The position numbers and the translations under genes are program-made. From Modestobacter sp. VKM Ac-2985 (GTDB taxonomy: Bacteria > Actinomycetota > Actinomycetes > Mycobacteriales > Geodermatophilaceae), in NCBI RefSeq assembly GCF_026967925.1, contig NZ_JAPVBI010000002.1:248001-312000 (forward strand): a stretch of DNA of 64,000 bases, in the 5' to 3' direction. Positions 7,852 to 46,905 of this stretch are shown one piece after another. The number at the start of each line of letters is the position of its first letter. Within the stretch, counting starts at the first letter, position 1. The notes under the pieces were generated by a model. It was not told the DNA's origin. It searched no databases and worked only from the letters and a program-made list of their open reading frames with translations.

Positions 7852-9633
7852 TCAGTCGGCGCCGGTCAGCGAGGTCGCCGGCAGCCAGTCGGCGTCGAGG
7901 AGCTCGGCGATCTGCTGCAGCCCGGCGGTGTCGCCGCCGGCGGTCGAGCCGGTGACCGCCAGCCGCTCGACCATCACCCGGGCGACGTCCTCCTCCACGG
8001 TGTCCTGCGCGAACGCGACCCGCCACGGTGAGACCTGGTGGTCCCGGTGCGTGCGGCCGGTGACCTGCCGGGCAGCGATCCCGGAGAACCGTGGCTGGTG
8101 GAACAGCCCGACCCGCGGCGTGGTCGACGCAGTACGGCCCCCGGGCAGCACCTCACCGGCGTGCAGGCTGATCGAGGCGGTCACGGTGAACACGCACACC
8201 GGCGCCTCCCCGCTCTGGAAGCGCAGCCGCTCGGCCTCCACGTCGAAGCGGTCCCGCCCGTAGATCGAGGCGACGGCGACGCCGCCGTCCAGCAGGGCCT
8301 CCCGGATCGGGTCGGCGGCGGTCTCGACGAACTCCACCGACACCGCGACCTGCCGGTCGGCCTCCACCTGGGCCTTCACCCAGTCGACCGTCGCCGCCGC
8401 CCGGATCAGCCCGGCCTTCTGCCGGAACCGCAGCAGCGCCGCCCGGCCGCGCGCGGTCTCCCGCTTCCGGCGGGCCAGCTGCATCTCCGCACGGAACTCC
8501 GACCACTCTGCCTCGTACTGCGCCCGCTCGGCCGGGGTCAGCTCGACCGGGGTGCCGGTGACCGACACCGGACCCCACGGGGCAGGGCGGTGCAGCGTGG
8601 CCGGCGGGTCGGTGTCGGCCAGCCAGCTGCGCAGCCGGGTCAGGTCGGCCCGGCGCTCGTCGGCGTCCTCGGTCCAGCTCCAGCCGTAGCGGGCACGTTC
8701 CACGTGGAACCCGTGCGCCGCGAGCCGGCTGGGCAGGTCGGCCCACTCCTTCAGCGGTTCCCCGTGGACGGCGGCGAAGTGCGGCGCCAGGTAGGGCAGC
8801 TCCAGCGGGGTGTGTGCCGGGGTCGCGGTGGCCAGCAGCACGTAGGGCGCGTCCTTGACCCGGCCGGCGCCGGACACCGACTTCCAGTGCTTCCACCGTT
8901 GGGTGGTGGTGTGCCGCACCATGTGCGCCTCGTCGGCGATCACGACGTCGAACCGTGCGCCGGTGGCCTTGGTCAGCCCGGCGACCTTGCCCAGCCGGTC
9001 CCAGGTGGTCACGCACCAGCGCAGGCCCTGCCCCTGCGCTGCAGCGCCCCCGAAGGCCGCGATCGAGCGGGCCCAGTGCGGCACCGTGATCGCGGCCGGC
9101 CGATCGGCGACGACGAGCACGGTGCGCACCGGCCGCCGCGCGGCGATCTGCGCGACGGCCAGGATCGCGGTGCCGGTCTTGCCCACCCCCGGGTCGTCGC
9201 CGAGCAGGAACATCCGCCCACCCGCGGCCTCGTGCGCGGCGATGACCGCCGCCCCGGTGAGCTGCTCCGGCCGGGGCGACATCGGGCGGCCCGCCGGCAC
9301 CGGGCGGGGCTCGGCGTTGAGCTCGTCCTCGAGGAACCGTTCCAGGCTGTGCGGCGGTGGGTCGTAGGGCGCCAGCGCCGCGGGCAGTGTGGCGCCCACG
9401 TACACGTGGGCGGACAGGCCGGCGTGCCAGCTCGCGCCCGGCGCCGGCGCACGGAACGGGACGGCGAGCACCCAGACCCGCTCCCCCGGCCCGGCGACCG
9501 GCAGCTCGGCGGCCAGCTTCGGCGCAGCCTTGCGGGCGGCTGCCTTCCGCTGTGCGGCCTTCCGGGTGGTCGTCGTCGTCCGCGTGGTGCTGCTGCGGGT
9601 CGAGCTGGTGGGGCGCCGTCGGCGTCCGGGCAC
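7852..9633 (-). CDS. SNF2-like DEAH-box helicase, orphan
   Basis: The 593-residue protein has a GTG start with AGGAG upstream. After a basic Thr/Arg/Lys-rich N terminus (about 1-40) comes a helicase core. Motif I is GDDPGVGKT, motif II is IADEAH, motif III is LLATATP, and the C-terminal lobe has QVTGRTHRDHQ as motif VI. The architecture resembles compact phage-type or restriction-associated SNF2 ATPases rather than RecQ or Rep. No phage, methylase or nuclease gene is adjacent, so its process is unknown. An exact parS-like palindrome lies inside the gene, encoding Phe-His-Val-Glu. Confidence 0.75.
   Translation of the reverse strand: MPGRRRRPTSSTRSSTTRTTTTTRKAAQRKAAARKAAPKLAAELPVAGPGERVWVLAVPFRAPAPGASWHAGLSAHVYVGATLPAALAPYDPPPHSLERFLEDELNAEPRPVPAGRPMSPRPEQLTGAAVIAAHEAAGGRMFLLGDDPGVGKTGTAILAVAQIAARRPVRTVLVVADRPAAITVPHWARSIAAFGGAAAQGQGLRWCVTTWDRLGKVAGLTKATGARFDVVIADEAHMVRHTTTQRWKHWKSVSGAGRVKDAPYVLLATATPAHTPLELPYLAPHFAAVHGEPLKEWADLPSRLAAHGFHVERARYGWSWTEDADERRADLTRLRSWLADTDPPATLHRPAPWGPVSVTGTPVELTPAERAQYEAEWSEFRAEMQLARRKRETARGRAALLRFRQKAGLIRAAATVDWVKAQVEADRQVAVSVEFVETAADPIREALLDGGVAVASIYGRDRFDVEAERLRFQSGEAPVCVFTVTASISLHAGEVLPGGRTASTTPRVGLFHQPRFSGIAARQVTGRTHRDHQVSPWRVAFAQDTVEEDVARVMVERLAVTGSTAGGDTAGLQQIAELLDADWLPATSLTGAD
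8697..8710. other. parS: parS-like ParB binding site (inside helicase gene)
   Basis: This is an exact copy of the palindrome GTTCCACGTGGAAC. The same 14-mer is the core of characterised parS sites (for example in Pseudomonas) and recurs three more times in this window. Flanking GCAC and GTGC extend the symmetry with one extra base. Being inside a coding sequence is normal for parS sites. Confidence 0.6.
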
Positions 9634-9724
9634 GGGGGATCTCCTGGGGGTCGACGACCGGTCCCGGCGACGCTACGGGCGCCCACCGACACCCAGGCGC
9701 AGCGACATGTGCTGCGATCAGCGC

Positions 9725-10567
9725 ATGACCGAGGACATCCGCCTGTCGGCCCGCACGGTCGGCGACTCCGGGCCCCGCGTGGTCTTCGTGCACGGCCTGT
9801 TCGGCCAGGGCCGCAACTGGACGACGATCGCGAAGGCGCTGGCCGCCGACGGGCACCGGGTCACCCTGCTCGACCTGCCCAACCACGGGCACTCGCCGTG
9901 GACCGACCGGGTCGACTACGTCGACATGGCCGAGTACGTCGCCGCCGAGCTGGCCCAGCTGGGCGAGCCGGTGACGCTGGTCGGGCACTCGATGGGCGGC
10001 AAGGTGGCGATGCAGCTGGCGCTGCGCCGGCCCGAGCTGCTGCGCGCCCTCGTCGTCGTCGACATCGCCCCGACCGACTACCCCGAGTCCGGCGGTCGCA
10101 CCGAGGACCCCGACGAGGAGGCCTCACCGTTCGCCGCGTTCATCACCGCCATGCAGGGCATGGACCTCGAGGAGCTGGAGACCCGGGAGGACGCCGACCA
10201 GGCGCTGCGCGCCGCCGTCCCCAGCACGATGGTGCGGTCCTTCCTGCTGCAGAGCCTGGTCCGGGACGGCGTCGGGGAGGGCGACGGCTGGCGCTGGCGG
10301 CTGAACCTGGAGACCCTGGCCCGCGACCTGGGTGAGCTGCGCCGGTTCCCCGACCCGCCGCCGGGGGCCAGCTACGAGGGGCCGGTGCTCTGGATCGCCG
10401 GGGCGAACTCCACCTACGTGCTGGAGGAGGACCGGCCGCGGATGGACGAGCTCTTCCCGACGACCCGGCTGGTCCGGGTGAAGAACGCCGGGCACTGGGT
10501 GCACTCCGAACAGCCCGAGGTCTTCCTGGAGACCGTGCGCCGGTTCCTGGCGCAGGTCGAGGGATGA
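9725..10567 (+). CDS. alpha/beta hydrolase, YbfF-type esterase
   Basis: The 280-residue protein has the canonical alpha/beta hydrolase layout. VVFVHGLFGQGRNW (oxyanion loop) comes near residue 18, the nucleophile elbow VGHSMGG near residue 85, and the C-terminal catalytic His is in NAGHWVHSEQP. The early segment and LLDLPNHGHSPW match esterases of the YbfF group. ATG 9725 is chosen because the fold starts right after it and upstream in-frame sequence overlaps the divergent helicase start. The gene ends by ATGA overlap with the bluB-cobT fusion; whether the two act together is unknown. Confidence 0.82.
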   Translation: MTEDIRLSARTVGDSGPRVVFVHGLFGQGRNWTTIAKALAADGHRVTLLDLPNHGHSPWTDRVDYVDMAEYVAAELAQLGEPVTLVGHSMGGKVAMQLALRRPELLRALVVVDIAPTDYPESGGRTEDPDEEASPFAAFITAMQGMDLEELETREDADQALRAAVPSTMVRSFLLQSLVRDGVGEGDGWRWRLNLETLARDLGELRRFPDPPPGASYEGPVLWIAGANSTYVLEEDRPRMDELFPTTRLVRVKNAGHWVHSEQPEVFLETVRRFLAQVEG

Positions 10568-12294
10568 CCACCTGGCCCAGGCCGGTACCGCTGATCGGCG
10601 ACGGCACCGCGGCGTCCGAGCGGGCCGCCGACCCCGCCGGCTGGGCGCTGCCGGCGGCCGACCGGGCCGGGCTGTACCGGACGGTCGAGGCCCGCCGCGA
10701 CGTCCGGCGGTACCGGCCGGACCCGGTGCCCGACGAGGTGCTGACCCGGGTGCTCACCGCCGCGCACCAGGCGCCGTCGGTGGGGCACAGCCAGCCGTGG
10801 CGGTTCGTCGTCGTCCGGGACGCCGGCATCCGGGACACCGCCGCCGTCCTCACCGACCGGGAGCGGCTGCGCCAGGCCGCCCAGCTCGACCCGGACGCCG
10901 CCGCCCGGCTGCTGGACCTGCAGCTGGCCGGGGTACGGGAGGCGCCGCTGGGCGTCGTCGTCTGCTGCGACCGGCGGACGCCGGCGGCCGGCGTGCTGGG
11001 CCGGGCGACCTTCCCCGACGCCGACCTGTGGAGCTGCGCAGCTGCGATCCAGAACCTGTGGCTGGCCGCCCGGGCGGAGGGACTGGGCGTCGGCTGGGTG
11101 ACGCTGTTCCGGCCCGAGGAGCTCGCCGACCTGCTCGGGCTGCCCGACGGGGTGGTCACCCTCGGCTGGCTGTGCCTGGGCTGGCCCGACGAGCGCCCGC
11201 CGGCCCCCGGCCTGGAGCGGGCCGCCTGGTCGCGCCGGCAGCCGCTGTCCGACGTCGTGCTGGCCGACCGGTGGCCGGCGGAGGAGGCCGCGCCCGCACC
11301 GCCGCCGTCCCGGCTGCGCAGCCCCGCACCCGCTGCGGTCGTCGGCGCCCGGGACGACGCCGACCGGCTGCTCACCCCACCGGGGTCGCTCGGCGTGCTG
11401 GACGGCGCGGTCGCCCGGGCGGTGGCCCTGGGCCTGGGCGACCTGACCGGGGGCGTGCTGCTGCTCGCCACCGCCGACCACCCGGTCACCGCGCACCACG
11501 TCTCGGCCTACCCGGGTTCGACCACGCGGGACGTCGCCACCGCCGCGGTCGCCGGGGTGGCCCTGGGGGCGACCGCCGCCCGGTCGGCGGGGCTCGGCCT
11601 GGTCGTGGTGGACGCCGGCGTCGCCGGCTCTGCGGTGCCCGGGGCGGTCGCTGCCCGGCCGGCCGGGGCCCGCGGGGACCTGGTGACCGGGCCGGCGATG
11701 ACGGCTGCGGACACCGCGGCGCTGCTCGCGGCCGGCCGGGCGCTGGGCGCCGAGCACGGGCGGGCCGGGCTGGTCGCGCTCGGCGAGGTCGGCGTCGGCA
11801 ACACCACGGTCGCCGCCGCCCTGGCCGCCGCACTGTTGCACGTGGAACCAGCCGACGTCGCCGGGCTCGGGTCCGGGGCGGACGCAGCCATGGTCGAGCG
11901 CAAGCGGGACGTCGTCGCGGCGGCGCTGGCCCGGGCCGGCACCGGCCTGGACCCGCAGACCGCGCTCGCCGAGCTGGGCGGTCCGGAGCTGGCCGTGCTC
12001 GCCGGGGTGGTGCTGGGGGCGGCGGAGGCCGGGGCGGTCGTCGTCCTGGACGGCTTCGCCACCGCGGTCGCCGCGCTGGTCGCCGTCCTGCTGGAGCCGG
12101 CGGCGCAGTCGGCGCTGGTGGCCGGCCAGCGCAGCCGGGAACGCGGCTGCGACGCCGTCCTGCAGGCCCTCGGCTGCGAGCCGCTGCTGGACCTGCGGCT
12201 GCGCGCCGGCGAGGGGGTGGGCGCGGTGCTCGCTGCCGGGCTGCTGCTGCAGGGGCTGCGGCTGCGCCGGGAGACCGCCCGGGTCGGCTCCTAG
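10564..12294 (+). CDS. cobT: BluB-CobT fusion: dimethylbenzimidazole synthase / phosphoribosyltransferase
   Basis: This is a 576-residue two-domain protein. Residues about 1-225 match BluB, the flavin-destroying synthase of 5,6-dimethylbenzimidazole: RRDVRRYRPDPVPDEVL, APSVGHSQPWRFVVV, and WLAARAEGLGVGWVTLF. After a Pro/Ala linker (about 230-255), residues about 260-570 match CobT, which joins that base to nicotinate mononucleotide: LLTPPGSLGVLD, ADHPVTAHHVSAYPG, LGEVGVGNTTVAAAL, and RAGEGVGAVLA with the catalytic Glu. The fusion would make and activate the lower ligand of cobalamin in one polypeptide. Start overlaps the esterase stop. No other cobalamin gene is nearby. Confidence 0.9.
   Translation: MTTWPRPVPLIGDGTAASERAADPAGWALPAADRAGLYRTVEARRDVRRYRPDPVPDEVLTRVLTAAHQAPSVGHSQPWRFVVVRDAGIRDTAAVLTDRERLRQAAQLDPDAAARLLDLQLAGVREAPLGVVVCCDRRTPAAGVLGRATFPDADLWSCAAAIQNLWLAARAEGLGVGWVTLFRPEELADLLGLPDGVVTLGWLCLGWPDERPPAPGLERAAWSRRQPLSDVVLADRWPAEEAAPAPPPSRLRSPAPAAVVGARDDADRLLTPPGSLGVLDGAVARAVALGLGDLTGGVLLLATADHPVTAHHVSAYPGSTTRDVATAAVAGVALGATAARSAGLGLVVVDAGVAGSAVPGAVAARPAGARGDLVTGPAMTAADTAALLAAGRALGAEHGRAGLVALGEVGVGNTTVAAALAAALLHVEPADVAGLGSGADAAMVERKRDVVAAALARAGTGLDPQTALAELGGPELAVLAGVVLGAAEAGAVVVLDGFATAVAALVAVLLEPAAQSALVAGQRSRERGCDAVLQALGCEPLLDLRLRAGEGVGAVLAAGLLLQGLRLRRETARVGS
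11835..11848. other. degenerate parS-like site, one mismatch
   Basis: GTTGCACGTGGAAC differs at one position from the exact 14-mer found four times elsewhere in the window. It lies inside the CobT part of the fusion gene. ParB sites with one mismatch are often bound weakly; this copy could also be chance. Confidence 0.3.
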
Positions 12295-14096: not shown

Positions 14097-14187
14097 CGGG
14101 CAGGACGCGGAGGAGCTGCCGGGATCGGAGTGTGCACAACAGCAGTGAACACGACGGGGCTGACGGTCGGGGGAGCATCCTGGTCCG

Positions 14188-15033: not shown

Positions 15034-15037
15034 GCCC

Positions 15038-15462: not shown

Positions 15463-15588
15463 GACCGGCGCCGGGCTCATCCGTCGGGAGGGTCGGGGCT
15501 GTCCGCCGCGCCGATCGGCTCCTAGGGTCGGGGGCGTCCGGCCCGTCGGGGCGGCTCCGCACGCGCGGCGATCACGGGGGACGAGCAG

Positions 15589-32648: not shown

Positions 32649-32662
32649 GTTCCACGTGGAAC
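32649..32662. other. parS: parS-like site between convergent genes
   Basis: This is an exact GTTCCACGTGGAAC. The symmetry extends perfectly to 24 bases (32644-32667) with GACCG on the outside. It fills the gap between the M20 peptidase stop and the end of the lacI-type gene, so it may also act as a two-way terminator. Confidence 0.65.
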
Positions 32663-32665
32663 CGG

Positions 32666-33670
32666 TCAGCGGCTCGTGCTGGACCGGACGGTGAGGGAGG
32701 GCCGTAGCGCCACCCGCGCAGGTGGGGCCTCCTGCGCACCCAGCACCCGCGACAGGAGGCGTACCGCCTCGGCCGCGATCTCCGCCTGCGGCTGCCGGAC
32801 GGTGGTCAACGGCGGATGGCTCAGCGCGGCGAACGGGATGTCGTCGAACCCGGTGACCAGCAGGTCGCGGGGGACGTCGACGCCTGCCGCCGCGCACGCC
32901 TGCAGCATCCCGAGCGCGATCAGGTCGTCGGCGCAGACGACGGCGTCCGGTCGTGGTCCGGCAGCCAGCAACGCGAGGGCGGCCTGCCGTCCCCACTCGA
33001 TCGAGTACTCGCCCAGCAGGACGTCCCGCTCACGCACGGCGATGCCCAGGCGTGCGGCGTGCCGGCGGAAGCCCGCGCCCCGCAGTTCGGTCGAGGAGTT
33101 GGTGAGCTGGGAGCTGACGAACGCGGCGGAGCGGACGCCGCGGTCGGCCAGGTGCTCCATGACCAGTTCCAGTGCGGCGTCGTCGTCGACCCCGACCCAG
33201 TCGCTGTCCACGCCGGTGACGTAGCGGTCGACCTGGACCAGGGGCAGCTCGTCCGCGGCCCACCGCACCGCCGTCGTGCTCAGGCTGCCGTGCACCGGGC
33301 TGATGATGATGCCGTCGACCTGGCGGGCGACGAGGCTGCGCAGTCGCTGTGCCTCCAGCTCCGGGTCCGACCGGGAGGAACACAGGAAGAGCTGTCGGCC
33401 GACGTCCTGCAGGGCGTGCTCGACGTGCTCGACGAGGCCGGTGAAGAACGGGTTGGCGATGCTCGGCACCACCATGCCGACGGTGTCGGTGCGGCTGCGA
33501 CGCAGCGCACTGGCGATGCCGTTCCCGGCGTAGCCGAGTTCGTCGGCGGCGCGGCGGACCTGGTCGACGACGGCCGGGGAGACCGGCTTGGCCCCGGACA
33601 GGGCGCGGGAGACGGTCGCGGTCGACACCTGTGCCCGCTCGGCGACGTCGCGGATGGTGACCCTCCCCAC
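32666..33670 (-). CDS. LacI-family transcriptional repressor
   Basis: The 334-residue repressor has a GTG start with GGAGG upstream. The N-terminal helix-turn-helix is TIRDVAERAQVSTATVSRAL, followed by the hinge helix ending SALRRSRTDTVG. The sugar-binding domain has VPSIANPFFTGLVE, then VDGIIISPVH and GFDDIPFAALSHPPLTTVRQ. It is divergent from the btpA-pfkB-ABC operon. Two near-identical palindromic sites flank that operon's promoter, which makes it the likely local repressor. The inducer is unknown. Confidence 0.9.
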   Translation of the reverse strand: MGRVTIRDVAERAQVSTATVSRALSGAKPVSPAVVDQVRRAADELGYAGNGIASALRRSRTDTVGMVVPSIANPFFTGLVEHVEHALQDVGRQLFLCSSRSDPELEAQRLRSLVARQVDGIIISPVHGSLSTTAVRWAADELPLVQVDRYVTGVDSDWVGVDDDAALELVMEHLADRGVRSAAFVSSQLTNSSTELRGAGFRRHAARLGIAVRERDVLLGEYSIEWGRQAALALLAAGPRPDAVVCADDLIALGMLQACAAAGVDVPRDLLVTGFDDIPFAALSHPPLTTVRQPQAEIAAEAVRLLSRVLGAQEAPPARVALRPSLTVRSSTSR

Positions 33671-33785
33671 GCACCCTCCTCTGTCGGTCTGCTGACTCCG
33701 TCATCATCGCCGACCGCGCGTGCGGGAGCGTGCCGTACGCCCGTGTCGAACAGATGTCACTCGGCTGACCAGCGGAAACACGAAT

Positions 33786-33797
33786 GTAAACGATTGC
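33786..33797. promoter_or_regulatory. LacI-type operator O1
   Basis: GTAAACGATTGC is an imperfect palindrome centred on CG, as LacI-family operators are. Its partner at 33844-33855 reads GTAATCGATTGC on the other strand, identical at 11 of 12 positions. It sits just upstream of the -35 box. Confidence 0.7.
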
Positions 33798-33800
33798 CTA

Positions 33801-33831
33801 TTGACGCCACCACGGGGTGCGCCACTAGCGT
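33801..33831 (+). promoter_or_regulatory. candidate promoter of the btpA-pfkB-ABC operon
   Basis: TTGACG (33801-33806) is followed after 19 bases by TAGCGT (33826-33831). These resemble the -35 and -10 boxes of the main sigma factor. The spacing is slightly long. The predicted transcript would start just before operator O2, so binding at O1 and O2 would block it. Confidence 0.5.
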
Positions 33832-33843
33832 CATCGGGGTCGT

Positions 33844-33855
33844 GCAATCGATTAC
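33844..33855. promoter_or_regulatory. LacI-type operator O2
   Basis: GCAATCGATTAC, the reverse of GTAATCGATTGC, matches O1 at 11 of 12 positions. The two centres are 58 bases apart, suiting a DNA loop or two dimers around the promoter. It lies ten bases before the first gene of the operon. Confidence 0.7.
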
Positions 33856-33865
33856 CTGAACGGGT

Positions 33866-34711
33866 GTGGACGTGGCAACGCAGCTCGGTGTGTACCCCCG
33901 CAAGCCCTCGGCGATGGCCGAGCTCTTCGGCACGGAGAAGACGCTCGTGGGTGCGGTCCACCTGCCTCCGCTCCCCGGCAGCCCCTCCTACCGCGGTCAG
34001 TCGGTGGCCGAGCTGTGCCGGTTCGCCGTCGAGGAGACGCAGGCCTACGTCGGCAACGGCTTCGACACCGTGATCGTGGAGAACCACTGGGACCTGCCGT
34101 TCCTCAAGCCGGGGGAGCACGGGTACGAGGTGGCCGCGACGATGGGCGTGATCACCGCCGCCGTCGTCGCCGAGCTCGGCACGAAGGTCGGGGTCAGCGT
34201 GCTGTCCAACGCCGGCCAGTGCTCGGTCGCCGCCGCCTGGGCCGCCGGGGCCGGCTGGGTCCGGGTCAACCAGTGGGCCAACGCCTACGTGGCCAACGAG
34301 GGGATCATCGAGGGGCAGGCGGCCAGCACCACCCGGTACCGGCACACGATCGGGGCCGACCCGGTGAAGGTCTTCGCCGATGTGCACGTCAAGCACGGAG
34401 CGCACGCGATCGTCGCCGACCGCACGCTGGCCGAGCAGACCGAGGACGCCGAGTTCTTCGACGCCGACGTCCTGATCGCCACCGGCTCCCGCACCGGGCA
34501 CCCGACGTCCGTGGCCGAGGTCGTGGGCATCAGGGACCACACCCAACTGCCGGTGATCATCGGCAGCGGCATCGACCCGGGCAACGTCGGTCCCCTGCTC
34601 GCCGAGTGTGACGGCGCGATCGTCGCGTCGGCCGCCAAGGAGAACAGCCGGTGGTGGGGCCGGGTCGACCCCGAGAAGGTGCGCGCCGTCTCCCGGGCCG
34701 CCGGACGGTGA
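33866..34711 (+). CDS. BtpA/SgcQ-family TIM-barrel protein
   Basis: The 281-residue protein has a GTG start. It matches the BtpA/SgcQ family along its length: LVGAVHLPPLPGSP, FDTVIVENHWDLPF, VGVSVLSNAGQCSVAAAWAA, VRVNQWANAYVANEGIIEG, VKVFADVHVKHG, and the C-terminal IIGSGIDPGN. This family is a phosphate-binding beta/alpha barrel of unproven chemistry; sgcQ lies in an E. coli sugar operon, and BtpA of cyanobacteria was named for photosystem I accumulation. As first gene of an uptake operon it is probably an enzyme on the pathway. It overlaps the kinase start by four bases. Confidence 0.85.
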   Translation: MDVATQLGVYPRKPSAMAELFGTEKTLVGAVHLPPLPGSPSYRGQSVAELCRFAVEETQAYVGNGFDTVIVENHWDLPFLKPGEHGYEVAATMGVITAAVVAELGTKVGVSVLSNAGQCSVAAAWAAGAGWVRVNQWANAYVANEGIIEGQAASTTRYRHTIGADPVKVFADVHVKHGAHAIVADRTLAEQTEDAEFFDADVLIATGSRTGHPTSVAEVVGIRDHTQLPVIIGSGIDPGNVGPLLAECDGAIVASAAKENSRWWGRVDPEKVRAVSRAAGR

Positions 34712-35598
34712 TCGTCTTCTGCGGGTACGCCAACCTCGACGTCGTCGGACGGGTGCCCCACGTCCCCCGTCCCGACGAGCGGGTGCACGCCGTCACCGTG
34801 GAGCACCTCCCGGGCGGGATGGCCGCCAACGCGGCGGTCGCCGCCGCCCGCGCCGGTGCGCAGGTCGCCTTCGCCGGCGTGGTCGGCGACGACCCGCTGT
34901 CCGCCCGGTTCCTCGCGGAGCTCACCGCCGAGGGCATCGACACGGGGTGGACCGACCGCACCGGCTTCCTGTCCACCGCGATCGTGCTGGTGGACGGCGC
35001 CGGCCGGCGCTCGGTGGTGAGCGAGGACGACGCCCTGGGGCCGGCCCACGTGACGGCGGTCGCCGATCGGCTGGCTGCCGACGGTGGGCTGCTCTACCTC
35101 GACGGTTACCGCGCGGCAGAGCTCGAGCAGGCCGCCCGGACCGGGGTCCGCCTGGCCGTGGACCTCGACGGCTGCGACGACCGCGACGTCGCGATCGCCG
35201 CGGTGCACGCCGCCGACCACGTCGTCGTCGGGCACCACCGGCTCACCGAGGTCCTGGCGGTTCCCGCTGCCGAGTGGGCGGCGCTCGCCCGCGCCGCGGG
35301 CGTGACCCTCGTCGTCACCGACGGGGCCCGGGGCTGGTCGCTGCACGAGCCCGACGGCTCGGTGGCGGCCCGGCCCGCGCTGGACGTCGAGGTCGTCGAC
35401 GACACCGGGGCGGGTGACTGCTTCACCGGCACGTACCTGGCCGCACTGGCGGCCGGCGCCTCCCCGCTCACCGCGGCGACCCGCGCCGGGGTCGCGGCGA
35501 GCCTGTCCTGCACCGTCCCGGGCGCGCGTGCCGCGCCCTCCCCGGCACTCGTCGACGCCGCTCTGGCCGGGTCCCCGGTCAGCTCGTCCGCCACCTGA
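34708..35598 (+). CDS. PfkB-family carbohydrate/nucleoside kinase
   Basis: The 296-residue kinase starts at GTG 34708, overlapping the upstream stop. It has the N-terminal LPGGMAANAAVAAARAGAQV with the GG-N substrate motif, and the C-terminal DDTGAGDCFTGTYLAALAAG with the anion hole and catalytic Asp. It should phosphorylate the imported sugar or nucleoside with ATP. The BtpA-like barrel may act next. Specificity cannot be read from the sequence. Confidence 0.85.
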   Translation: MIVFCGYANLDVVGRVPHVPRPDERVHAVTVEHLPGGMAANAAVAAARAGAQVAFAGVVGDDPLSARFLAELTAEGIDTGWTDRTGFLSTAIVLVDGAGRRSVVSEDDALGPAHVTAVADRLAADGGLLYLDGYRAAELEQAARTGVRLAVDLDGCDDRDVAIAAVHAADHVVVGHHRLTEVLAVPAAEWAALARAAGVTLVVTDGARGWSLHEPDGSVAARPALDVEVVDDTGAGDCFTGTYLAALAAGASPLTAATRAGVAASLSCTVPGARAAPSPALVDAALAGSPVSSSAT

Positions 35599-35668
35599 CG
35601 CACCGCCCGCACCACCGCTCCCCCGCACCGCGATCCCGCAGCATCCGGCACCGCACCCAGGAGGACCC

Positions 35669-36685
35669 ATGAAGCGACCCCTCGCCCTAGCCGCAGGCGC
35701 GTGCCTGCTCGCGCTGGCCGCGTGCGACAGCGCTCCCGCGCCGTCGTCCGACGCCGAGACCGAGGCCGGCGGCGGCACGTCGACCGCCTCGCTGCCGGAG
35801 CCCAGCGCCCAGCCGGTCGGCTGCGAGACCGACGAGCCCCTGGAGATCGGGCTGGTGACGATCAACCTCCAGGCGCTGTTCTTCAACCAGATCAACGAGG
35901 CCGCGCAGGCGATGGCCGACGAGTACGACGTCGACCTGCAGATCATCAGCGGCAACGACGACTCGGTGACGCAGGCGAACGCGATCAACACGCTGGTCGC
36001 CGACGGCGTGGACGCGGTGATCGTGGCCGCGGTCGACACCGAGGGCATCAAGCCGGCCATCCGGGCGGCCGACGAGGCCGGCGTCCCGGTCGTGGCGGTC
36101 GACGCCATCGTCGACGACCCGGCGGTGGACGCCCAGGTCGGTACGGCCAACGCCGAGGGCGGGCAGCTGATCGGCGAGGAGCTGCTGGAGCTCTCCGGTG
36201 GCGAGGGCGAGGTCGGCATCGTCAGTGCGCTGAACAGCACCATCCAGCTGGAGCGTCAGCAGGGCTTCGAGGAGACCGTCACCGCCGGCGGGATGACCAT
36301 CGGCACCGTGGTCGACGGCCGCAACATCCAGGAGAACGCCCAGGCGGCCGCGGAGAACCTGCTCACCGGCAACCCGGACCTGCAGTACGTGTACGCCACC
36401 GGCGAGCCGGCGCTCATCGGCCTGGCCGCCGGGGTGCGCAGCCAGGGCGCCCAGGACCGGGTGACCGCCGTCGGCTGGGACCTCTCCGACCCTGCCGTCG
36501 AGGGCCTGGAGGAGGGCTGGATCGCCGGCGTCGTCCAGCAGAACACCTTCGAGTTCGGCTACCAGGCGATGGCCGCGGCGATCGACCTGGCGTGCGGCAA
36601 CCCGGTGGAGCGGGAGAACCCGGTCGACATCCAGATCGTGACGCCGGAGAACGTCTCCGAGTACCTGTACTACCTGGAGGGCTGA
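35669..36685 (+). CDS. sugar ABC transporter, substrate-binding lipoprotein (RbsB-like)
   Basis: The 338-residue lipoprotein has a signal peptide ending in LALAAC with the lipid-anchored Cys at residue 19. An acidic Ser/Gly linker follows, then a Peripla_BP_4 domain: LEIGLVTINLQALFFNQINE, VDAVIVAAVDTEGIKPAI, VPVVAVDAIVDDP, YVYATGEPALIGLAAG and VTAVGWDLSD. AGGAGG precedes the ATG. It binds the substrate outside the membrane for the RbsA/RbsC-type proteins encoded next. Confidence 0.9.
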   Translation: MKRPLALAAGACLLALAACDSAPAPSSDAETEAGGGTSTASLPEPSAQPVGCETDEPLEIGLVTINLQALFFNQINEAAQAMADEYDVDLQIISGNDDSVTQANAINTLVADGVDAVIVAAVDTEGIKPAIRAADEAGVPVVAVDAIVDDPAVDAQVGTANAEGGQLIGEELLELSGGEGEVGIVSALNSTIQLERQQGFEETVTAGGMTIGTVVDGRNIQENAQAAAENLLTGNPDLQYVYATGEPALIGLAAGVRSQGAQDRVTAVGWDLSDPAVEGLEEGWIAGVVQQNTFEFGYQAMAAAIDLACGNPVERENPVDIQIVTPENVSEYLYYLEG

Positions 36686-36688
36686 CGC

Positions 36689-37450
36689 ATGGCTGACGAG
36701 ACCGGGGACCTCCTCGTCGAACTCGAGGGCATCACCAAGTCCTACGGGCCGGTGAAGTCACTGCGCGGGGTCGACCTCACCCTGCGTCGCGGAGAGGTCC
36801 TCGGCCTCGTCGGCGACAACGGTGCCGGCAAGTCCACGCTGATGAAGGTGCTGGCCGGGGCCGTGCAGCACGATGCCGGGGAGATCCGGGTGCACGGACG
36901 GCCGGTGCGCTTCAGCAACCCCTCGGCGGCGCAGGACGAGAAGATCGGCATCGTCTACCAGGACCTGGCGCTCTGCGACACCCTCGACGTCGCCAGCAAC
37001 CTGTTCCTCGGCCGGGAACCCCGCACGGGCCCGTTCCTCGACCGGAAGACGATGCACGAGCGGGCCGCGCAGATCCTGGCCGACCTGCACGTCAAGGTCA
37101 CCAGCACCCACCAGGAGATCGGCACCCTCTCCGGCGGTCAGCGGCAGACGGTGGCCATCGCCCGCGCGGTGTCCTTCGCCCCCGACGTGCTCATCCTCGA
37201 CGAGCCGACCGCCGCGCTCGCCGTCGCCGAGGTCGAGTCGGTCCTGAAGCTGATCACCGACGTCGCGCGCCGGGGGGTCGGGGTCATCCTGATCACCCAC
37301 CGCCTGCAGGACCTCTTCCGCGTCTGCGACCGGATCACCGTGATGTACGAGGGGCAGAGCGTCGACGACGCGCTCATCAAGGACCTCGACATCGAGAAGC
37401 TCGTCGGTCTGATCACCCGTTCCGCCCCCGGGCAGGAGGAAGCCGCGTGA
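36689..37450 (+). CDS. sugar ABC transporter ATPase, single domain
   Basis: The 253-residue protein carries one ABC domain: Walker A GDNGAGKSTLMKVL, Q-loop VYQDLAL, signature LSGGQRQTVAIARA, Walker B VLILDEPTAAL and H-loop ITHR. RbsA and most ribose-type ATPases have two fused domains; this one has a single domain, like FrcA, and should act as a homodimer. It lies three bases after the binding-protein gene and overlaps the permease start by ATGA-type coupling (GTGA). Confidence 0.92.
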   Translation: MADETGDLLVELEGITKSYGPVKSLRGVDLTLRRGEVLGLVGDNGAGKSTLMKVLAGAVQHDAGEIRVHGRPVRFSNPSAAQDEKIGIVYQDLALCDTLDVASNLFLGREPRTGPFLDRKTMHERAAQILADLHVKVTSTHQEIGTLSGGQRQTVAIARAVSFAPDVLILDEPTAALAVAEVESVLKLITDVARRGVGVILITHRLQDLFRVCDRITVMYEGQSVDDALIKDLDIEKLVGLITRSAPGQEEAA

Positions 37451-38478
37451 CCACCACGACCACCACCGCACCGCCCGGGGAGTCGGCCACCCGGCTGGCC
37501 CAGCAGCAGTCCTGGTGGGAGCGGGTGAACAAGGCGACCCTGGTCATGGCCGGGGTCACCCTGGCCGTCTGCGTCTTCTTCGCCGTCGTCTCGGACGCCT
37601 TCCTGACCTTCGCGAACATCTCCAACGTGGCCACCCAGGTGGCGCCGGTGGTGATCATCGGGGTGGCGATGACCTTCGTCATCACCTCCGGCCAGATCGA
37701 CCTGTCGGTCGGCTCGATCGTCGCCTTCGTGTCCGCGGTCTCCGCCCAGCTGCTGCAGACCGGCTGGGACTCCTCGCTCGTCCTGATCGCCGGGGTGCTG
37801 CTGGGCGCCGGGTGGGGCCTGGTGAACGGGTGGTTCACCGCCTACGCCGGGATCCCGGCGTTCATCGTGACGCTGGCGACCCTGTCGGTGATCCGGGGCA
37901 TCGCGCTGCTGACCACCGAGGGCTTCTCGGTGCCGATCGAACGCTCGACGTTCGTCGCGCAGCTGGGGACGGCGCGGTGGCTCGGCTTCTCCAGCAGCGC
38001 CTGGATCGCGCTGGTGTGCGTCGTCCTGGGGATCGTGGTGCTGCACCGGACCCGCTTCGGTCAGTACGTCATCGGCATCGGCTCGGCCGAGGAGTCCGTC
38101 CGCCGGGCCGGCGTGAACGTGCGGCGGATCAAGATGCTGGCGCTCTGCCTGAGCGGGCTCGCCGCCGGGGTCGCCGGCCTCCTCATCGCCGCCCGGCTCG
38201 GCTCCGGCTCGGCGAACGCCGCCCAGGGCTTCGAGCTCACGGTCATCGCCGCGGTCGTCATCGGCGGGACCAGCCTGTTCGGCGGGCGGGGCACGGTGGT
38301 GGGCACGCTGATCGGGGCGATCCTGACCGGCGTCATCGCCAACGGGCTCACCCTGATGGGCGTCAGCCCGTTCCTGACGCCGATCATCACCGGGACGGTG
38401 CTGCTCGCCGTGATCTGGGTGAACCTGCGCGGCAAGGACATCGGCGGGGCACTGCGTGGCCTGGTGGGCGGCCGGTGA
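37447..38478 (+). CDS. sugar ABC transporter permease (RbsC-like)
   Basis: The 343-residue membrane protein belongs to the BPD_transp_2 family. About nine hydrophobic segments are visible. Conserved blocks are TSGQIDLSVGSIVAF near residue 80, VNGWFTAYAGIPAFIVTLA near residue 120, and the cytoplasmic loop YVIGIGSAEESVRRAGVNV near residue 205 that contacts the ATPase. GGTSLFGGRGTVVGTLIGA follows. Start overlaps the ATPase gene and its stop overlaps the hydrolase gene. Confidence 0.93.
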   Translation: MTTTTTTAPPGESATRLAQQQSWWERVNKATLVMAGVTLAVCVFFAVVSDAFLTFANISNVATQVAPVVIIGVAMTFVITSGQIDLSVGSIVAFVSAVSAQLLQTGWDSSLVLIAGVLLGAGWGLVNGWFTAYAGIPAFIVTLATLSVIRGIALLTTEGFSVPIERSTFVAQLGTARWLGFSSSAWIALVCVVLGIVVLHRTRFGQYVIGIGSAEESVRRAGVNVRRIKMLALCLSGLAAGVAGLLIAARLGSGSANAAQGFELTVIAAVVIGGTSLFGGRGTVVGTLIGAILTGVIANGLTLMGVSPFLTPIITGTVLLAVIWVNLRGKDIGGALRGLVGGR

Positions 38479-39512
38479 GCACGGTCCGCACCGTCTCAGG
38501 CGACGTCGACTCGGCCGACCTCGGGCTGGTGCTCCCCCACGAGCACCTGGTCAACGACAACGCCGTGGCCTTCCGCCCGGCGGCCGACCAGCGGCTGCGC
38601 CGCCTGCTGGACGCCCCGGTGTCGGCGGACCTGGCCTGGCTGCTGGCCGACCACCCGTACGAGAACGCCGACAACTGCCGGCTGGACGACCTCGACGCGA
38701 TCGCCGCGGACCTGCAGGTGTTCGCCGCCGTCGGTGGGCGGACCGTCGTCGACCTGACCCCACCGGGGATCGGCCGCGACCCGGAGCGGCTGCGCGCACT
38801 GTCCGAGCGCACCGGTGTGCAGGTGGTCATGGGCTCGGGCTGGTACCTCCAGGCCAGCCACCCGGCGCACCTCGCGACGTCCACGCCGGATCAGCTGGCC
38901 GCCGAGCTGGTGGCCGAGTTCGACCCCGCACACGACCTCCGCCCCGGGGTGATCGGCGAGATCGGGGTCTCCCCCGCCTTCACCGACGACGAGCGGACCG
39001 CACTGCGGGCCGCCTGCCGGGCCCAGCGCGAGGTCGGGGTGCCGCTGTTCGTGCACCTGCCCGGCTGGCTGCGGCGCGCCCACGAGGTGCTCGACGTCGT
39101 GCTCGACGAGGAGGGGGTCGACCCGGCCGCCGTCGTCCTGTGCCACATGGACCCCTCCGGCGGGGACCCCGACCACCAGCGGTCGGTCGCCGCCCGGGGG
39201 ACGTTCCTGGAGTTCGACATGGTCGGCATGCCGTTCGACTTCCCCGGGGAGGGGCGGTCGCCGTCACCGGCGGAGACCACTGCCGCCGTCGTGGCGCTGG
39301 TCCAGGCCGGGCACGGCTCCCAGGTCCTGCTCTCGCACGACCTCTTCCTCAAGGCGATGCTGCGCCGCTTCGGCGGCAACGGGCTGGCCTACGTCCCCGT
39401 CGTCTTCGCCGACCGGCTGCGCGCTGCCGGCCTCGCCGACGACGTGGTGGCCGCACTGATGACCGACAACCCGCGGACGTTGTTCGACGGCGCCGCACGG
39501 AAGGAACGCTGA
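38475..39512 (+). CDS. phosphotriesterase-family hydrolase/lactonase
   Basis: The 345-residue protein starts at GTG 38475, overlapping the permease stop. PTE-family metal ligands are visible: LPHEHL near residue 22, VIGEIGVS (Glu where many members carry a carboxylated Lys), LFVHLPGW, VLCHMDPSG, and LLSHDLF with the last Asp. Members hydrolyse lactones or phosphorylated sugar lactones more often than phosphotriesters. Inside this operon it may open a sugar lactone formed from the imported substrate. Confidence 0.85.
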   Translation: MSTVRTVSGDVDSADLGLVLPHEHLVNDNAVAFRPAADQRLRRLLDAPVSADLAWLLADHPYENADNCRLDDLDAIAADLQVFAAVGGRTVVDLTPPGIGRDPERLRALSERTGVQVVMGSGWYLQASHPAHLATSTPDQLAAELVAEFDPAHDLRPGVIGEIGVSPAFTDDERTALRAACRAQREVGVPLFVHLPGWLRRAHEVLDVVLDEEGVDPAAVVLCHMDPSGGDPDHQRSVAARGTFLEFDMVGMPFDFPGEGRSPSPAETTAAVVALVQAGHGSQVLLSHDLFLKAMLRRFGGNGLAYVPVVFADRLRAAGLADDVVAALMTDNPRTLFDGAARKER

Positions 39513-39515
39513 CCG

Positions 39516-40265
39516 ATGGCCCGGATCCTGATCGCCGGTGAGAGCTGGATGACCACCTCGACACACGTCAAGGGGGTGGACGAGTTCTCCGTGCACTCCT
39601 ACGTGGAGGGCGTCGGCCCGCTGCGGGACGCGCTCACCGGTCGCGGCCACGTGGTGGAGCACCTCCCGGCGCACCTCGTGCCGACCCGGTTCCCGGGGGA
39701 CGCCGCAGCGCTGTCCGCCTACGACCTCGTGGTGCTCTCCGACATCGGCGCCAACTCCATCCAGCTGGCGCCCCAGGTCTTCGAGCGGTTCGAGCCCGGG
39801 CAGGACCGCCTCGCCGCGCTGCGCGACTGGGTCGGCGAGGGCGGTGCGCTGCTGATGATCGGCGGCTACCTGTCCTTCAGCGGTTTCCAGGCGCGGGCGG
39901 CGTTCCGGCAGACGGCCATCGCCGAGGTGCTCCCGGTGACGATGCTCCCCGAGGACGACCGGGTGGAGAGCCCGGCCGGCATCGTCCCCACCGTCGGCGA
40001 CCCCGGCCACGCCGCACTGGGCGGCGCGGGCGCCGACTGGCCCGGACTGCTCGGGTACAACCGGACGGTCGCCAAGGACGGCGCCGAGGTGCCCGCCCGG
40101 GTGGGTCAGGACCCGCTGGTCGCGCTGGCCCCCTTCGGCGCAGGCCGGGCCGGGGTCTTCACCTCCGACTGCTCGCCGCACTGGGCGCCGCCGGCCTTCT
40201 GCGAGGAGTGGCCGGGCTACGCGGACCTCTTCGACGGCCTGGCGCGCTGGCTGGTCCGCGGGTGA
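39516..40265 (+). CDS. ThuA-like / glutamine amidotransferase-fold protein
   Basis: The 249-residue protein has a class I glutamine amidotransferase-like fold: ILIAGESWMTTSTHVKGVDE, YDLVVLSDIGANSI, VGEGGALLMIGGYLSFSGF, and VFTSDCSPHWAP. No clear catalytic Cys-His-Glu triad is visible. Related ThuA-like proteins occur in sugar and polyol operons with unproven roles. It lies between the PTE-like and TenA-like genes and overlaps the next start by GTGA, which argues for a joint role. Confidence 0.7.
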   Translation: MARILIAGESWMTTSTHVKGVDEFSVHSYVEGVGPLRDALTGRGHVVEHLPAHLVPTRFPGDAAALSAYDLVVLSDIGANSIQLAPQVFERFEPGQDRLAALRDWVGEGGALLMIGGYLSFSGFQARAAFRQTAIAEVLPVTMLPEDDRVESPAGIVPTVGDPGHAALGGAGADWPGLLGYNRTVAKDGAEVPARVGQDPLVALAPFGAGRAGVFTSDCSPHWAPPAFCEEWPGYADLFDGLARWLVRG

Positions 40266-40897
40266 CCGGCAGCCGCTCGGCGCGGCTGGTCGAGCGGCAC
40301 GCCGGCCTGCTGGACCGGGCCTGTGACGTCCGGTTCGTCCGGGAGGCGACGGCGGGCACGCTCCCCGCCCCCGACTTCGCCAGGTACCTGCTCGTCGAGG
40401 AGGCGTTCGTGCTGACCGCGGCCCGGGTCCTCGGCCGGGTCGTGTGGGAGTCGGACGGCTGGGCGGAGCTGCTGCCGTCCGCCCGGTCGCTCACCAACCT
40501 CGTCACCGAGCAGCGCGACTACTTCGCCGGCCTGCGCCACCGCTGGCCGGTCGAGGACGCACCGGCGACGCTGGCGCGTGCGGCGGTGCTGTCGGAGGTG
40601 GTGCTGCGGCAGGTGACCGAGGCCGGGCGGCCCGCCGCGCTCGCCGGGATGCTCGCCGCCGAGACGATGTACGCCCGCTGGTGCACCGCGGCCGCCGCGC
40701 AGCCGGCCGACCGGCACCCGGACCTGCAGGCGTGGATCGAGCTGCACGCCGAGCCGGCCTTCCTCGGGCAGGTGGCGGCGCTGCGTGACGACGTCGACGC
40801 GCTGCCGCCGGAGCTTGCCGACGACACCGCCCTGGACCGCTGGTTCGTCGCGGTGCTGGAAGCGGAGATCGCCTTCCACGACGCCGTCCACGGCTGA
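40262..40897 (+). CDS. TenA/THI-4-like protein
   Basis: The 211-residue all-helical protein starts at GTG 40262, coupled to the previous gene. It resembles TenA: DFARYLLVEEAFVLTAARVL near residue 40, EMMYxxW-like ETMYARWC with a Cys near residue 140, and the C-terminal EAEIAFHDAV with the conserved Glu. TenA proteins cleave degraded thiamine pyrimidines or related amines. No TPP riboswitch precedes this operon, so it may act on a different amine released from the substrate. It is the last gene of the operon. Confidence 0.72.
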   Translation: MTGSRSARLVERHAGLLDRACDVRFVREATAGTLPAPDFARYLLVEEAFVLTAARVLGRVVWESDGWAELLPSARSLTNLVTEQRDYFAGLRHRWPVEDAPATLARAAVLSEVVLRQVTEAGRPAALAGMLAAETMYARWCTAAAAQPADRHPDLQAWIELHAEPAFLGQVAALRDDVDALPPELADDTALDRWFVAVLEAEIAFHDAVHG

Positions 40898-40933
40898 CCC
40901 GGGTCCCGGTTCCACGTGGAACCGGGACCCGGG
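40898..40933. other. parS: 36-base perfect palindrome with parS core
   Basis: An uninterrupted 18-base arm starts one base after the TenA-like stop and is exactly mirrored. The centre (40909-40922) is GTTCCACGTGGAAC, identical to the other three exact sites. It could serve as ParB site and as transcription terminator of the operon at the same time. Confidence 0.65.
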
Positions 40934-40966
40934 GGCAGGATGGGGCCGACGGCGAGGAGGCCCGAC

Positions 40967-41905: not shown

Positions 41906-41962
41906 CCATGGGTGACCGGTCGCACGGTGCCCCACCGGGTCGCGCGTGATGGGATCGACGCT

Positions 41963-42487
41963 GTGAACCCAGGTGCGGACGTCCCCCCGGCAGTGGTCGA
42001 CCCCGCCGTGATGCGCGACGTGCTCGGGCACTTCGTCTCCGGCGTCACCGTGGTGACGGCGATGACCGTCGACGGCCCGGTGGGCTTCACCTGCCAGTCG
42101 TTCAGCTCGCTGTCCCTGGACCCGCCGCTGGTCGCCTTCGCCCCGGCCCGCACCTCACGCACCTGGCCGCTGCTCCGCGCGGCCGGCAGCTTCTGCGTCA
42201 ACGTCCTCGCCGACTCCCAGAGCGGCCTCTCCCGGCAGTTCGCCCGCTCCGGCACCGACAAGTACGCCGGGGTGCAGTGGGCGCCGAGCCCGCACGGTGC
42301 CCCCGTGCTCGCCGACGTCGTCGCCTGGATCGACAGCGAGCTGTGGGCCGAGTACGACGGCGGTGACCACACCATCGTCGTCGCCCGGGTGCTGGACCTC
42401 GGCGCCGATGCCTCCCGTTCCCCGCTGCTGTTCCACCGCGGCGCCTACGGTCTCCAGCAGGCCCGGCTGGAGACCGACGAGCACTGA
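41963..42487 (+). CDS. flavin reductase-like FMN-binding protein
   Basis: The 174-residue protein is of the flavin reductase domain family. It has VLGHFVSGVTVVTAMTVDGP, GFTCQSFSSLSLDPPLVAF, FCVNVLADSQSGLSRQFA and GDHTIVVARVLDLG. It may supply reduced FMN to a monooxygenase, but none is adjacent. GTG 41963 is chosen because the conserved domain follows closely; an upstream in-frame start exists at 41912. Confidence 0.82.
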   Translation: MNPGADVPPAVVDPAVMRDVLGHFVSGVTVVTAMTVDGPVGFTCQSFSSLSLDPPLVAFAPARTSRTWPLLRAAGSFCVNVLADSQSGLSRQFARSGTDKYAGVQWAPSPHGAPVLADVVAWIDSELWAEYDGGDHTIVVARVLDLGADASRSPLLFHRGAYGLQQARLETDEH

Positions 42488-42509
42488 TCCCGGCGGAGCG
42501 CCGGCCCCG

Positions 42510-44867: not shown

Positions 44868-44943
44868 CGAGTGATTTTAGGAGATGGTCATCGGTTGCGC
44901 ACCACGGAGTACCGCCCGGTCGGGCCGGTGTCACCCGCGCGGG

Positions 44944-45426
44944 TCATCCGGTGTGGTCGGTCCCGCCGGTCTCGGCCGGTGCGTCGGCGACCCGGGACCG
45001 CTGGCGCAGCCACAGCAGGCCGAGCACCGGGAGCAGCAGCGGGACGTACCCGTAGCCCTGCCCGTAGCCCGACCACACGGTGGCGTCCGGGAACGCCGCC
45101 GGGTCCAGCAGCGAGAGCGTGCCCACCACCAGCACGCCGGCCAGTTCGATCGAGCAGGCGACCACAGCGGTGCGCCGGCCACCGCGACCACCGCGGGCCA
45201 GTCCGACCGTGGCGATCACGTAGACCACCGCGGCGACGGCCGACAGCAGGTACGCCAGCGGCGCCTCGTCGAACTGCGTCGACAGCTGGACCGCCGCTCG
45301 TGCACCCGCGGCGAGGGCGAACACCCCGTAGAGCGCGACCAGCACCCGCCCCGGGCCGCGGATCGTGCCCGGCTCGGCGGACGTCCCCTCCGCGGCCGGC
45401 CGGCCCAGCGCACCGCCGTCAGCCAC
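44944..45426 (-). CDS. small membrane protein, unknown function
   Basis: The 160-residue protein has four hydrophobic segments, at about residues 27-47, 57-76, 87-105 and 123-141, and a charged C-terminal tail. No family motif is recognised. Its start overlaps the end of a second small membrane protein gene by eight bases, so the two are expressed together and may form a complex. Confidence 0.65.
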   Translation of the reverse strand: MADGGALGRPAAEGTSAEPGTIRGPGRVLVALYGVFALAAGARAAVQLSTQFDEAPLAYLLSAVAAVVYVIATVGLARGGRGGRRTAVVACSIELAGVLVVGTLSLLDPAAFPDATVWSGYGQGYGYVPLLLPVLGLLWLRQRSRVADAPAETGGTDHTG

Positions 45427-45784
45427 CGGTGACCTCCCACAGGTCCAGCAGTCGCCAGAGCATCACGGCGACGGCCAGCGCGGCGACCCCGAGCACCGTC
45501 CCCGCCCAGCGGGTCGGATCGGATCGGGCCCAGAGCAGCCCGGCGATCGGCAGCAGCACCACGCTGAGCAGGTAGGCGAGGAACGTGGGCAGGTCCTCGG
45601 GCCGGTCCCCGCCCGCGAGCGCGGCCACCGCCACGCCGAGCTGCACCAGCAACAGCAGCTCCAGCAGCCCGGTCCCGGCCAGGTGTGCGGTGCCGATCCG
45701 GCGCCGCAGCGCCGTGCTGAGCCCACCGAGGGCGGCCAGCACGACGGCGACGACGGTCGCGGCGACGACGAGCGGTGTGCTCAC
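45419..45784 (-). CDS. small membrane protein, unknown function
   Basis: The 121-residue protein has four hydrophobic segments: about residues 3-22, 36-58, 66-84 and 92-112. No known motif is visible. It is the first gene of a two-gene minus-strand unit with the 160-residue membrane protein. Both have the same topology and similar size, so they may be distant relatives. Confidence 0.65.
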   Translation of the reverse strand: MSTPLVVAATVVAVVLAALGGLSTALRRRIGTAHLAGTGLLELLLLVQLGVAVAALAGGDRPEDLPTFLAYLLSVVLLPIAGLLWARSDPTRWAGTVLGVAALAVAVMLWRLLDLWEVTGG

Positions 45785-45838
45785 CGGTGGCGGCCGGTCA
45801 GGATGGGTGGCACGCCCCCATCCTGCCCGGCGGCCGGA

Positions 45839-46831
45839 TCAGCGGTGCACGGTGGACATGTCCGGGTACCGGTCACCGGCCGCGGCCCCGGCCGGGGCGG
45901 CCTCGTCCAGCGCCCGCAGGTCCTCCTCGGTGAGGACGACGTCGGCGGCGGCCGCGTTCTCCTCCAGGTACCGCACCCGCTTGGTGCCCGGGATCGGCAC
46001 GACCGCCGGGGCGCCGGCCCGGCCCGACTGGGCCATCACCCAGGCCAGCGCCAGCTGGGTGGCGGTGACGCCCTTGGCCTCGGCGAGCTCGCGGACCCGG
46101 TCGACGAGCTCCAGGTTCCGGATGAACGCCGCCCCCTGGAAACGGGGGTTGCGCCGGCGGAAGTCGTCGGGATCGAGGTCGTCGATGCTGCGGATCTGCC
46201 CGGAGAGGAAGCCGCGGCCGATCGGCGAGTAGGCGACGAAGCCGATGCCCAGCTCGGCGCAGGTGGCCAGCACGCCGTCCTCCTCCGGGTCGCGGGTCCA
46301 CAGCGAGTACTCGGTCTGCAGCGCGGTGACCGGCAGCACGGCGTGCGCCCGGCGGATGGTGTCGGGCGCGGCCTCGGAGATCCCCGCGTGCCGGATCTTC
46401 CCGGCCTCCACCAGCTCGGCCAGCGCGCCCCAGGTCTCCTCGATCGGCACGGTCGTGTCGACCCGGTGCTGGTAGTAGAGGTCGATGACGTCGACGCCCA
46501 GCCGCTGCAGCGAGGCGTCGCAGGCGCGGTGCACGTACTCGGCGCGGCCGTTGATCCGGAGGAAGGAGCCGTCCTCGCCGCGCTCGTTGCCGAACTTGGT
46601 GGCCAGCACCACCTCGTCGCGGCGGCCGGCGATGGCCTGGCCGACGAGGCGTTCGTTGGTGAAGGGGCCGTACATGTCGGCGGTGTCGAGGAACGTGACG
46701 CCGAGGTCGAGGGCCCGGCCGATGGTGCGCTCGGCCTCCGACTGGTCCCCGGTGCCGTAGAACTCGCTCATCCCCATGCAGCCCAGACCCTGGGCGGAGA
46801 CGGTCAGGTCGCGGAGCATGCGTGTCTGCAT
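45839..46831 (-). CDS. aldo/keto reductase
   Basis: The 330-residue NADPH-dependent reductase has [18 protein letters not shown] at the start, the catalytic [14 protein letters not shown] (Asp, Tyr), the Lys in [10 protein letters not shown], and DLYYQHRVD with the His. The coenzyme site is [14 protein letters not shown] plus [16 protein letters not shown]. This is the AKR13/YajO-like group. ATG 46831 is preferred over an upstream ATG because it begins right before the first beta hairpin. Confidence 0.88.
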
Positions 46832-46891
46832 GGCCCCACCCTGCCCGCCGGCGAGCGTGCGCAACCCGGGCAGGGTGGTGACCAGCGCCTG

Positions 46892-46905
46892 GTTCCACGT
46901 GGAAC
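46892..46905. other. parS: parS-like site in divergent gap
   Basis: This exact GTTCCACGTGGAAC lies between the divergent aldo/keto reductase and N-acetylglutaminylglutamine synthetase genes. There is little extra symmetry outside the 14-mer, which argues that the core itself, not a hairpin, is conserved. Confidence 0.65.

What the first reader, a model, noticed from the sequence alone, without database searches (positions are those of the whole stretch)
8697..46905. Cluster of exact parS-like palindromes across 38 kb
GTTCCACGTGGAAC occurs exactly at 8697, 32649, 40909 and 46892, with a one-mismatch copy at 11835. Chance expectation for a given 14-mer with six A/T positions in DNA this GC-rich is far below one copy per window. 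The positions are varied (inside a helicase gene, between convergent genes, after an operon, in a divergent gap), which argues for a DNA-binding function and not a shared gene context. The same core is a characterised ParB site in Pseudomonas. If right, this segment is part of the centromere region and oriC should be close on the genome.
Basis: partly seen in the sequence, partly recalled or inferred. Interest (0 to 1): 0.75.

Follow-up and report, generated by a model that had tools for sequence, protein, structure and literature searches.

The report
Ordinary chromosome-centromere (parS) cluster
The repeated palindromes are copies of parS, the bacterial centromere site that the ParB protein binds, scattered around the replication origin of a Modestobacter-like soil bacterium; this is a known system, with a few unusual local details.

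Summary
GTTCCACGTGGAAC is exact at 8697, 32649, 40909 and 46892, with a one-mismatch copy at 11835. The 4.72-Mb genome has 11 exact copies, all in one 164-kb stretch that also holds dnaA, the only parB match, and parA behind a twin parS. GTTNCACGTGNAAC occurs 21 times, probably all within about 0.52 Mb around the origin. It is in 96 of 96 family genomes searched, 1338 sites, reversed control 0. ParB resemblance points to Modestobacter. This is a chromosomal ParABS centromere: a new member of a known kind.

Less ordinary: this genus uses mostly C, not T, at position 4; asymmetric C/G sites tend to lie further out; two window sites sit in strong hairpins at gene 3' ends; those two bound an 8.25-kb operon found full length in 4 of 23 genus genomes. 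Tested and not supported: parS gaps as breakpoint hotspots; ParB residue 197 or 199 alone setting position 4. ParB binding was not measured.

The parts
8697..8710 (.). exact parS GTTCCACGTGGAAC inside a helicase-like gene (7852-9633, -)
   Evidence: orthologous site in 9 of 9 genomes compared
11835..11848 (+). hybrid parS GTTGCACGTGGAAC inside a BluB/CobT-like fusion gene (10564-12294, +)
   Evidence: orthologous site in 5 of 9 genomes compared
32649..32662 (.). exact parS between convergent genes (M20 peptidase end 32645, LacI-type regulator end 32666), centre of a 26-bp perfect palindrome that takes in both stop codons
   Evidence: predicted hairpin -31.7 kcal/mol; parS at this junction also in G006 and G017
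40909..40922 (.). exact parS 11 nt downstream of a TenA-like gene, core of a 36-bp perfect palindrome (predicted hairpin -41.1 kcal/mol)
   Evidence: arms 40898-40933
46892..46905 (.). exact parS in a divergent gap (aldo/keto reductase - / N-acetylglutaminylglutamine synthetase +)
   Evidence: orthologous site in 6 of 9 genomes compared
32663..40908 (+). 8.25-kb segment between two parS copies: LacI-type regulator and operon BtpA, PfkB kinase, sugar-binding protein, ABC ATPase, permease, PTE, GATase1-like, TenA; full length in 4 of 23 genus genomes, with parS on both sides in 3

Best explanation
The palindromes are parS sites of the chromosomal ParABS system. Shown here: the sites, their confinement to the origin region, their recurrence at orthologous places across the genus, and single matches for ParB and DnaA, a parA next to parB, and an SMC gene. 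Inferred from the known system: ParB dimers bind each site through the helix-turn-helix, load as CTP-dependent clamps and slide onto nearby DNA; the ParB complexes recruit SMC; ParA moves the duplicated origin regions apart.
For: 11 of 11 exact copies lie in one 164-kb stretch holding dnaA and parAB. 21 of 21 GTTNCACGTGNAAC sites lie on C1 and C2. The two on C1 fall on the left arm: the C1:7228 ortholog is 249 kb from the twin parS on the same contig of G006, and the C1:76831 ortholog is 270 kb from the twin in G008. 96 of 96 family genomes searched carry the pattern, 1338 sites, reversed control 0. ParB has ParB_N, HTH_ParB and ParB_C domains and scores 211 bits on TIGR00180, cut-off 58. Most parS-contacting residues of Caulobacter ParB named in PMC7383237 (passages) correspond to the same or a similar residue here. 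parA lies next to parB behind a twin parS. One SMC match is over the cut-off, 924 against 567 bits. Site positions are orthologous: 8 of 28 groups have members in all 9 genomes compared (one of the 8 mixes two neighbouring loci).
Against: None that speaks against parS, but limits: ParB binding was not measured. Core conservation is partly built in, because the relatives' sites were picked by the pattern; only positions 4 and 11 were free. With one mismatch allowed the looser pattern is less specific: 29 sites against 8 for the reversed control. Matches to the DnaA box (consensus from memory) near dnaA are few and none is exact, so the origin is placed by dnaA and parAB, not by a box cluster.
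Confidence: 0.96

Rival explanations
1. Operator sites of a transcription factor that happens to bind a CACGTG-centred palindrome.
For: Some sites lie in promoter-proximal gaps: 17 of 152 sites in divergent gaps.
Against: 71 of 152 sites are inside genes and 7 between convergent genes; the genes next to the window's sites are unrelated in function; the sites cluster at the origin.
Confidence: 0.02
2. The intergenic copies are mainly terminator hairpins, and the shared core is incidental.
For: Of the 19 own sites on C2 folded and listed, three (C2:165411, 280649, 288909) are cores of hairpins of -32 to -44 kcal/mol at gene 3' ends.
Against: 71 of 152 sites are coding, and 0 of those 71 have 5 or more of 6 symmetric flank pairs. 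Strong hairpins without parS occur in 5 of 20 convergent and 6 of 46 codirectional gaps scanned. A terminator role may be added at some sites but cannot explain the motif.
Confidence: 0.01
3. Chance or codon-driven recurrence in GC-rich coding DNA.
For: Some coding copies read in frame as TTC/TTG-CAC-GTG (frames worked out by hand).
Against: Expected 0.008 exact copies per genome against 11 found; reversed control 0 in 96 of 96 genomes; 81 of 152 sites are not coding.
Confidence: 0.002

Closest known systems
Chromosomal ParABS of other Actinobacteria (Streptomyces, Corynebacterium, Mycobacterium)
   Same: Many parS around oriC, parAB near dnaA, ParB of the same family; 22.8 sites on average per Streptomyces chromosome (PMC8743542, passages), 10 in C. 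glutamicum (PMC7083940, passages).
   Different: In the 75 parB loci that I take to lie outside the family (L038-L112, up to 21 kb each, three without a genus name) the 250 sites are 197 T/T, 51 C/T, 2 C/C and none with G; in nine genomes of this genus 96 of 152 sites are C/C and 52 carry G on at least one side. Near parB only the twin is present in the four family loci with sites (L033-L036); the rest are spread over hundreds of kb.
Myxococcus xanthus parS
   Same: 22 sites with consensus TGTTCCACGTGGAACG, i.e. C at position 4 (table in PMC7022226, passages).
   Different: Unrelated phylum; here the bases just outside the 14-bp core are not conserved.
Pseudomonas aeruginosa parS and half-parS
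   Different: Four origin-proximal full parS there, plus ParB binding at hundreds of half-sites; half-sites were not examined here.

Membership tests
chromosomal parS / ParABS | 14-bp palindromic core GTTNCACGTGNAAC | tested here: met
   21 sites by definition of the pattern, 11 of them fully symmetric C/C. The outer T/A pair of the 16-bp form is not conserved; 14-bp consensus forms are also listed, e.g. for M. smegmatis (PMC7022226).
chromosomal parS / ParABS | sites concentrated in the origin domain (20% of the chromosome, PMC7022226) | tested here: met
   11% of the own genome if C1 abuts C2; 6.3% in G004, 10.3% in G010, 11.0% of the main contig in G008.
chromosomal parS / ParABS | cognate ParB with N-terminal, HTH and dimerisation domains | tested here: met
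   single match in the genome; PF02195, PF17762, PF23552.
chromosomal parS / ParABS | ParA ATPase next to parB | tested here: met
   C2:214385-215500, AAA_31 5.7e-54.
chromosomal parS / ParABS | parS-contacting residues of ParB | tested here: met
   Caulobacter G170, S172, R173, N178, G201, R204 correspond to G193, S195, R196, N201, G224, R227; K171 is R194 and Q162 is H185 (register set by motif, my inference).
chromosomal parS / ParABS | ParB binds the sites in vivo | not testable with these tools
   needs ChIP-seq.

The most novel reading that the evidence does not exclude
The family has a two-tier centromere: symmetric high-affinity parS mostly in the inner ~80 kb, and conserved, asymmetric C/G-hybrid parS out to ~250-450 kb that nucleate ParB more weakly and extend or grade the ParB/SMC domain. 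Some inner sites double as terminator hairpins.
Probability: 0.15. Interest if true: 0.45.

Novelty: new member of a known kind. Interest (0 to 1): 0.22.

Why it matters
It places the origin and centromere of a little-studied actinobacterial family and shows that the parS array is family-wide. Its natural variants at position 4 (C/C, C/G, C/T, G/G), in some cases at orthologous places, would let ParB affinity and nucleation be compared without designed sites.

Tried and rejected
parS gaps as synteny-breakpoint hotspots: suggested by the 8.25-kb operon between two parS, tested against G004, G008 and G010 in both directions. parS gaps were broken in 21 of 45 cases, other gaps in 282 of 720; none of the six tests was significant (lowest p 0.10, own against G004). 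Not supported.

ParB residues setting position 4: S197 and V199 are in 14 of 14 family sequences aligned, against P in 71 of 75 and I in 64 of 75 others. The four S197 loci outside the family have only T halves (36 of 36), and the 11 V199 loci have 13 C and 79 T halves. GC content correlates weakly with C use in the others (rho 0.31, p 0.008). Neither residue alone explains it; the pair together cannot be separated from family membership.

Orientation bias of hybrid sites relative to the origin: looked at by eye on the lists; too few independent sites and confounded with gene direction; dropped.

Distance of hybrids, in five genomes and only on the contig that holds the twin: 34 sites with G, median 130 kb from the twin (range 36-448); 56 symmetric sites, median 48 kb (range 0-202); the ranges overlap. 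By orthologous group (13 symmetric, 14 hybrid) p = 0.005; intergenic groups without the twin (8 and 4) p = 0.028; coding groups (4 and 10) p = 0.11. Suggestive only. Hybrid and symmetric forms occur at the same locus in different species (groups C2:326273 and C2:445211).

Literature: the exact 14-mer was in 0 papers of the library. A search for parS/ParB with Modestobacter, Geodermatophil- or Blastococcus found 98 papers; of the 20 listed none looked like a parS study by title and start of abstract. Searches for parS with terminators or convergent genes (10 of 12 listed) and for parS asymmetry (6 of 271 listed) showed nothing on the point. The 2007 parS survey by Livny et al. was not held; here it is known only through its citation and from recall.

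Full report
Observation. With up to three mismatches there are 11 in the window against 2.76 expected, and 0 of 100 shuffles reach 11. A composition estimate gives 0.008 exact copies per genome.

Whole genome. The window is C2:248001-312000 of a 4.72-Mb genome in 9 contigs. There are 11 exact copies, all at C2:131278-294892. GTTNCACGTGNAAC has 21, all on C2:86958-445211 and at C1:7228 and C1:76831; with one mismatch allowed the pattern gives 29 against 8 for the reversed control. dnaA is at C2:208346-210064, the single parB match at C2:215802-216335, and parA at 214385-215500 with a twin parS at 214313 and 214348. An SMC gene is present. C1:7228 lies near a contig end. In G006 its ortholog lies 249 kb left of the twin on one contig, and in G008 the C1:76831 ortholog lies 270 kb from the twin on the arm opposite to the right-arm sites. 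So all 21 sites probably lie within about 291 kb left and 231 kb right of the twin (the C1-C2 join is inferred).

Relatives. The closest ParB matches are Modestobacter (96 and 93%), followed by genera that I place, from my own knowledge, in Geodermatophilaceae. 23 of 23 genus genomes and 96 of 96 family genomes searched (at least 90% complete) carry the pattern, with 0 for the reversed control in all of them. All sites of G004 and G010 (one contig each) lie in 6.3 and 10.3% of the chromosome, and all sites of G008 in 11.0% of its 4.51-Mb main contig. I fetched all 131 sites of eight relatives and grouped them with the 21 own sites by flanking homology: 28 groups, 8 of them with members in all 9 genomes. 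One of those 8 mixes two neighbouring loci. Intergenic flanks are about 50% identical to the first member of the group while the core is kept; since the sites were picked by the pattern, only positions 4 and 11 are independent evidence. They are 100% identical in 48 intergenic comparisons, and 100 and 93% in 54 coding ones; the twin group, groups under three members and sites with short flanks were left out.

Site type. Of 152 sites in nine genomes, 96 are C/C, 45 C/G, 6 G/T, 1 G/G and 4 C/T at position 4. In 75 parB loci taken to lie outside the family there are 250 sites: 197 T/T, 51 C/T, 2 C/C and none with G; 2 of the 75 loci have no site. Sites with G lie further out on average, but the ranges overlap, the support is modest and coding constraint contributes: in frame, C2:131278 reads TTC where C2:259835, 435044, 445211 and C1:7228 read TTG (worked out by hand).

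Hairpins. 15 of 152 sites have at least 5 of 6 symmetric flank pairs (1.2% of random window places): 0 of 71 coding, 10 of 57 codirectional, 2 of 17 divergent and 3 of 7 convergent. Of the 19 own C2 sites listed, three form strong hairpins at gene 3' ends, two of them in the window (32649 and 40909). The extended symmetry is not kept in all orthologs (G006 and G017 at the 32649 junction). Comparable hairpins occur in parS-free gaps, 5 of 20 convergent and 6 of 46 codirectional. A terminator role at these sites is possible and untested.

Operon between two parS. Window 32663-40908 lies between two parS copies sharing a 20-bp repeat. Full-length matches exist in G000, G006, G017 and G010, 4 of 23 genus genomes; the best match in the other 19 is partial. 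The first three have parS on both sides; G010 has one parS about 1.1 kb further left. In seven other relatives examined there is one parS at the junction and no full-length operon match; in G001, G003 and G004 the M20-gene flank is kept, while in G002, G005, G008 and G019 the matching flank stops before that gene. The remaining 12 genomes were not examined at the junction. A general link of parS to synteny breaks was not supported.

Literature. Passages of PMC8743542, PMC7022226, PMC7083940 and PMC7383237 were read; other papers were seen only in search listings. From those passages, arrays of 10 to 20-odd parS near oriC are known in Actinobacteria, and the C/C form is the listed consensus for Myxococcus xanthus. 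The finding is therefore a new member of a known kind.

Noticed in passing
window 32663-40908: 8.25-kb LacI-type regulator/sugar-ABC/kinase/PTE operon between two parS copies, full length in 4 of 23 genus genomes; gain, loss or transfer not resolved.
   Followed up: partly
window 10564-12294: BluB (5,6-dimethylbenzimidazole synthase, over the NCBIfam cut-off) fused to a CobT-like domain (below its NCBIfam cut-off, over Pfam's) in one protein.
   Followed up: no
window 51859-60575: CheA-like kinase followed by three methyl-accepting chemotaxis proteins in a row.
   Followed up: no
L022 (C2:200001-220000): Twin parS 35 bp apart start-to-start just upstream of parA. All 9 genus genomes compared have a twin; in 4 of 9 one copy is C/T, in 5 of 9 both are C/C. 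A twin 33 bp apart recurs in genomes of another genus of the family.
   Followed up: no
genomes G084-G087: Four family genomes (3.0-3.7 Mb) have only 1-2 sites, against 8-23 in the other 92.
   Followed up: no
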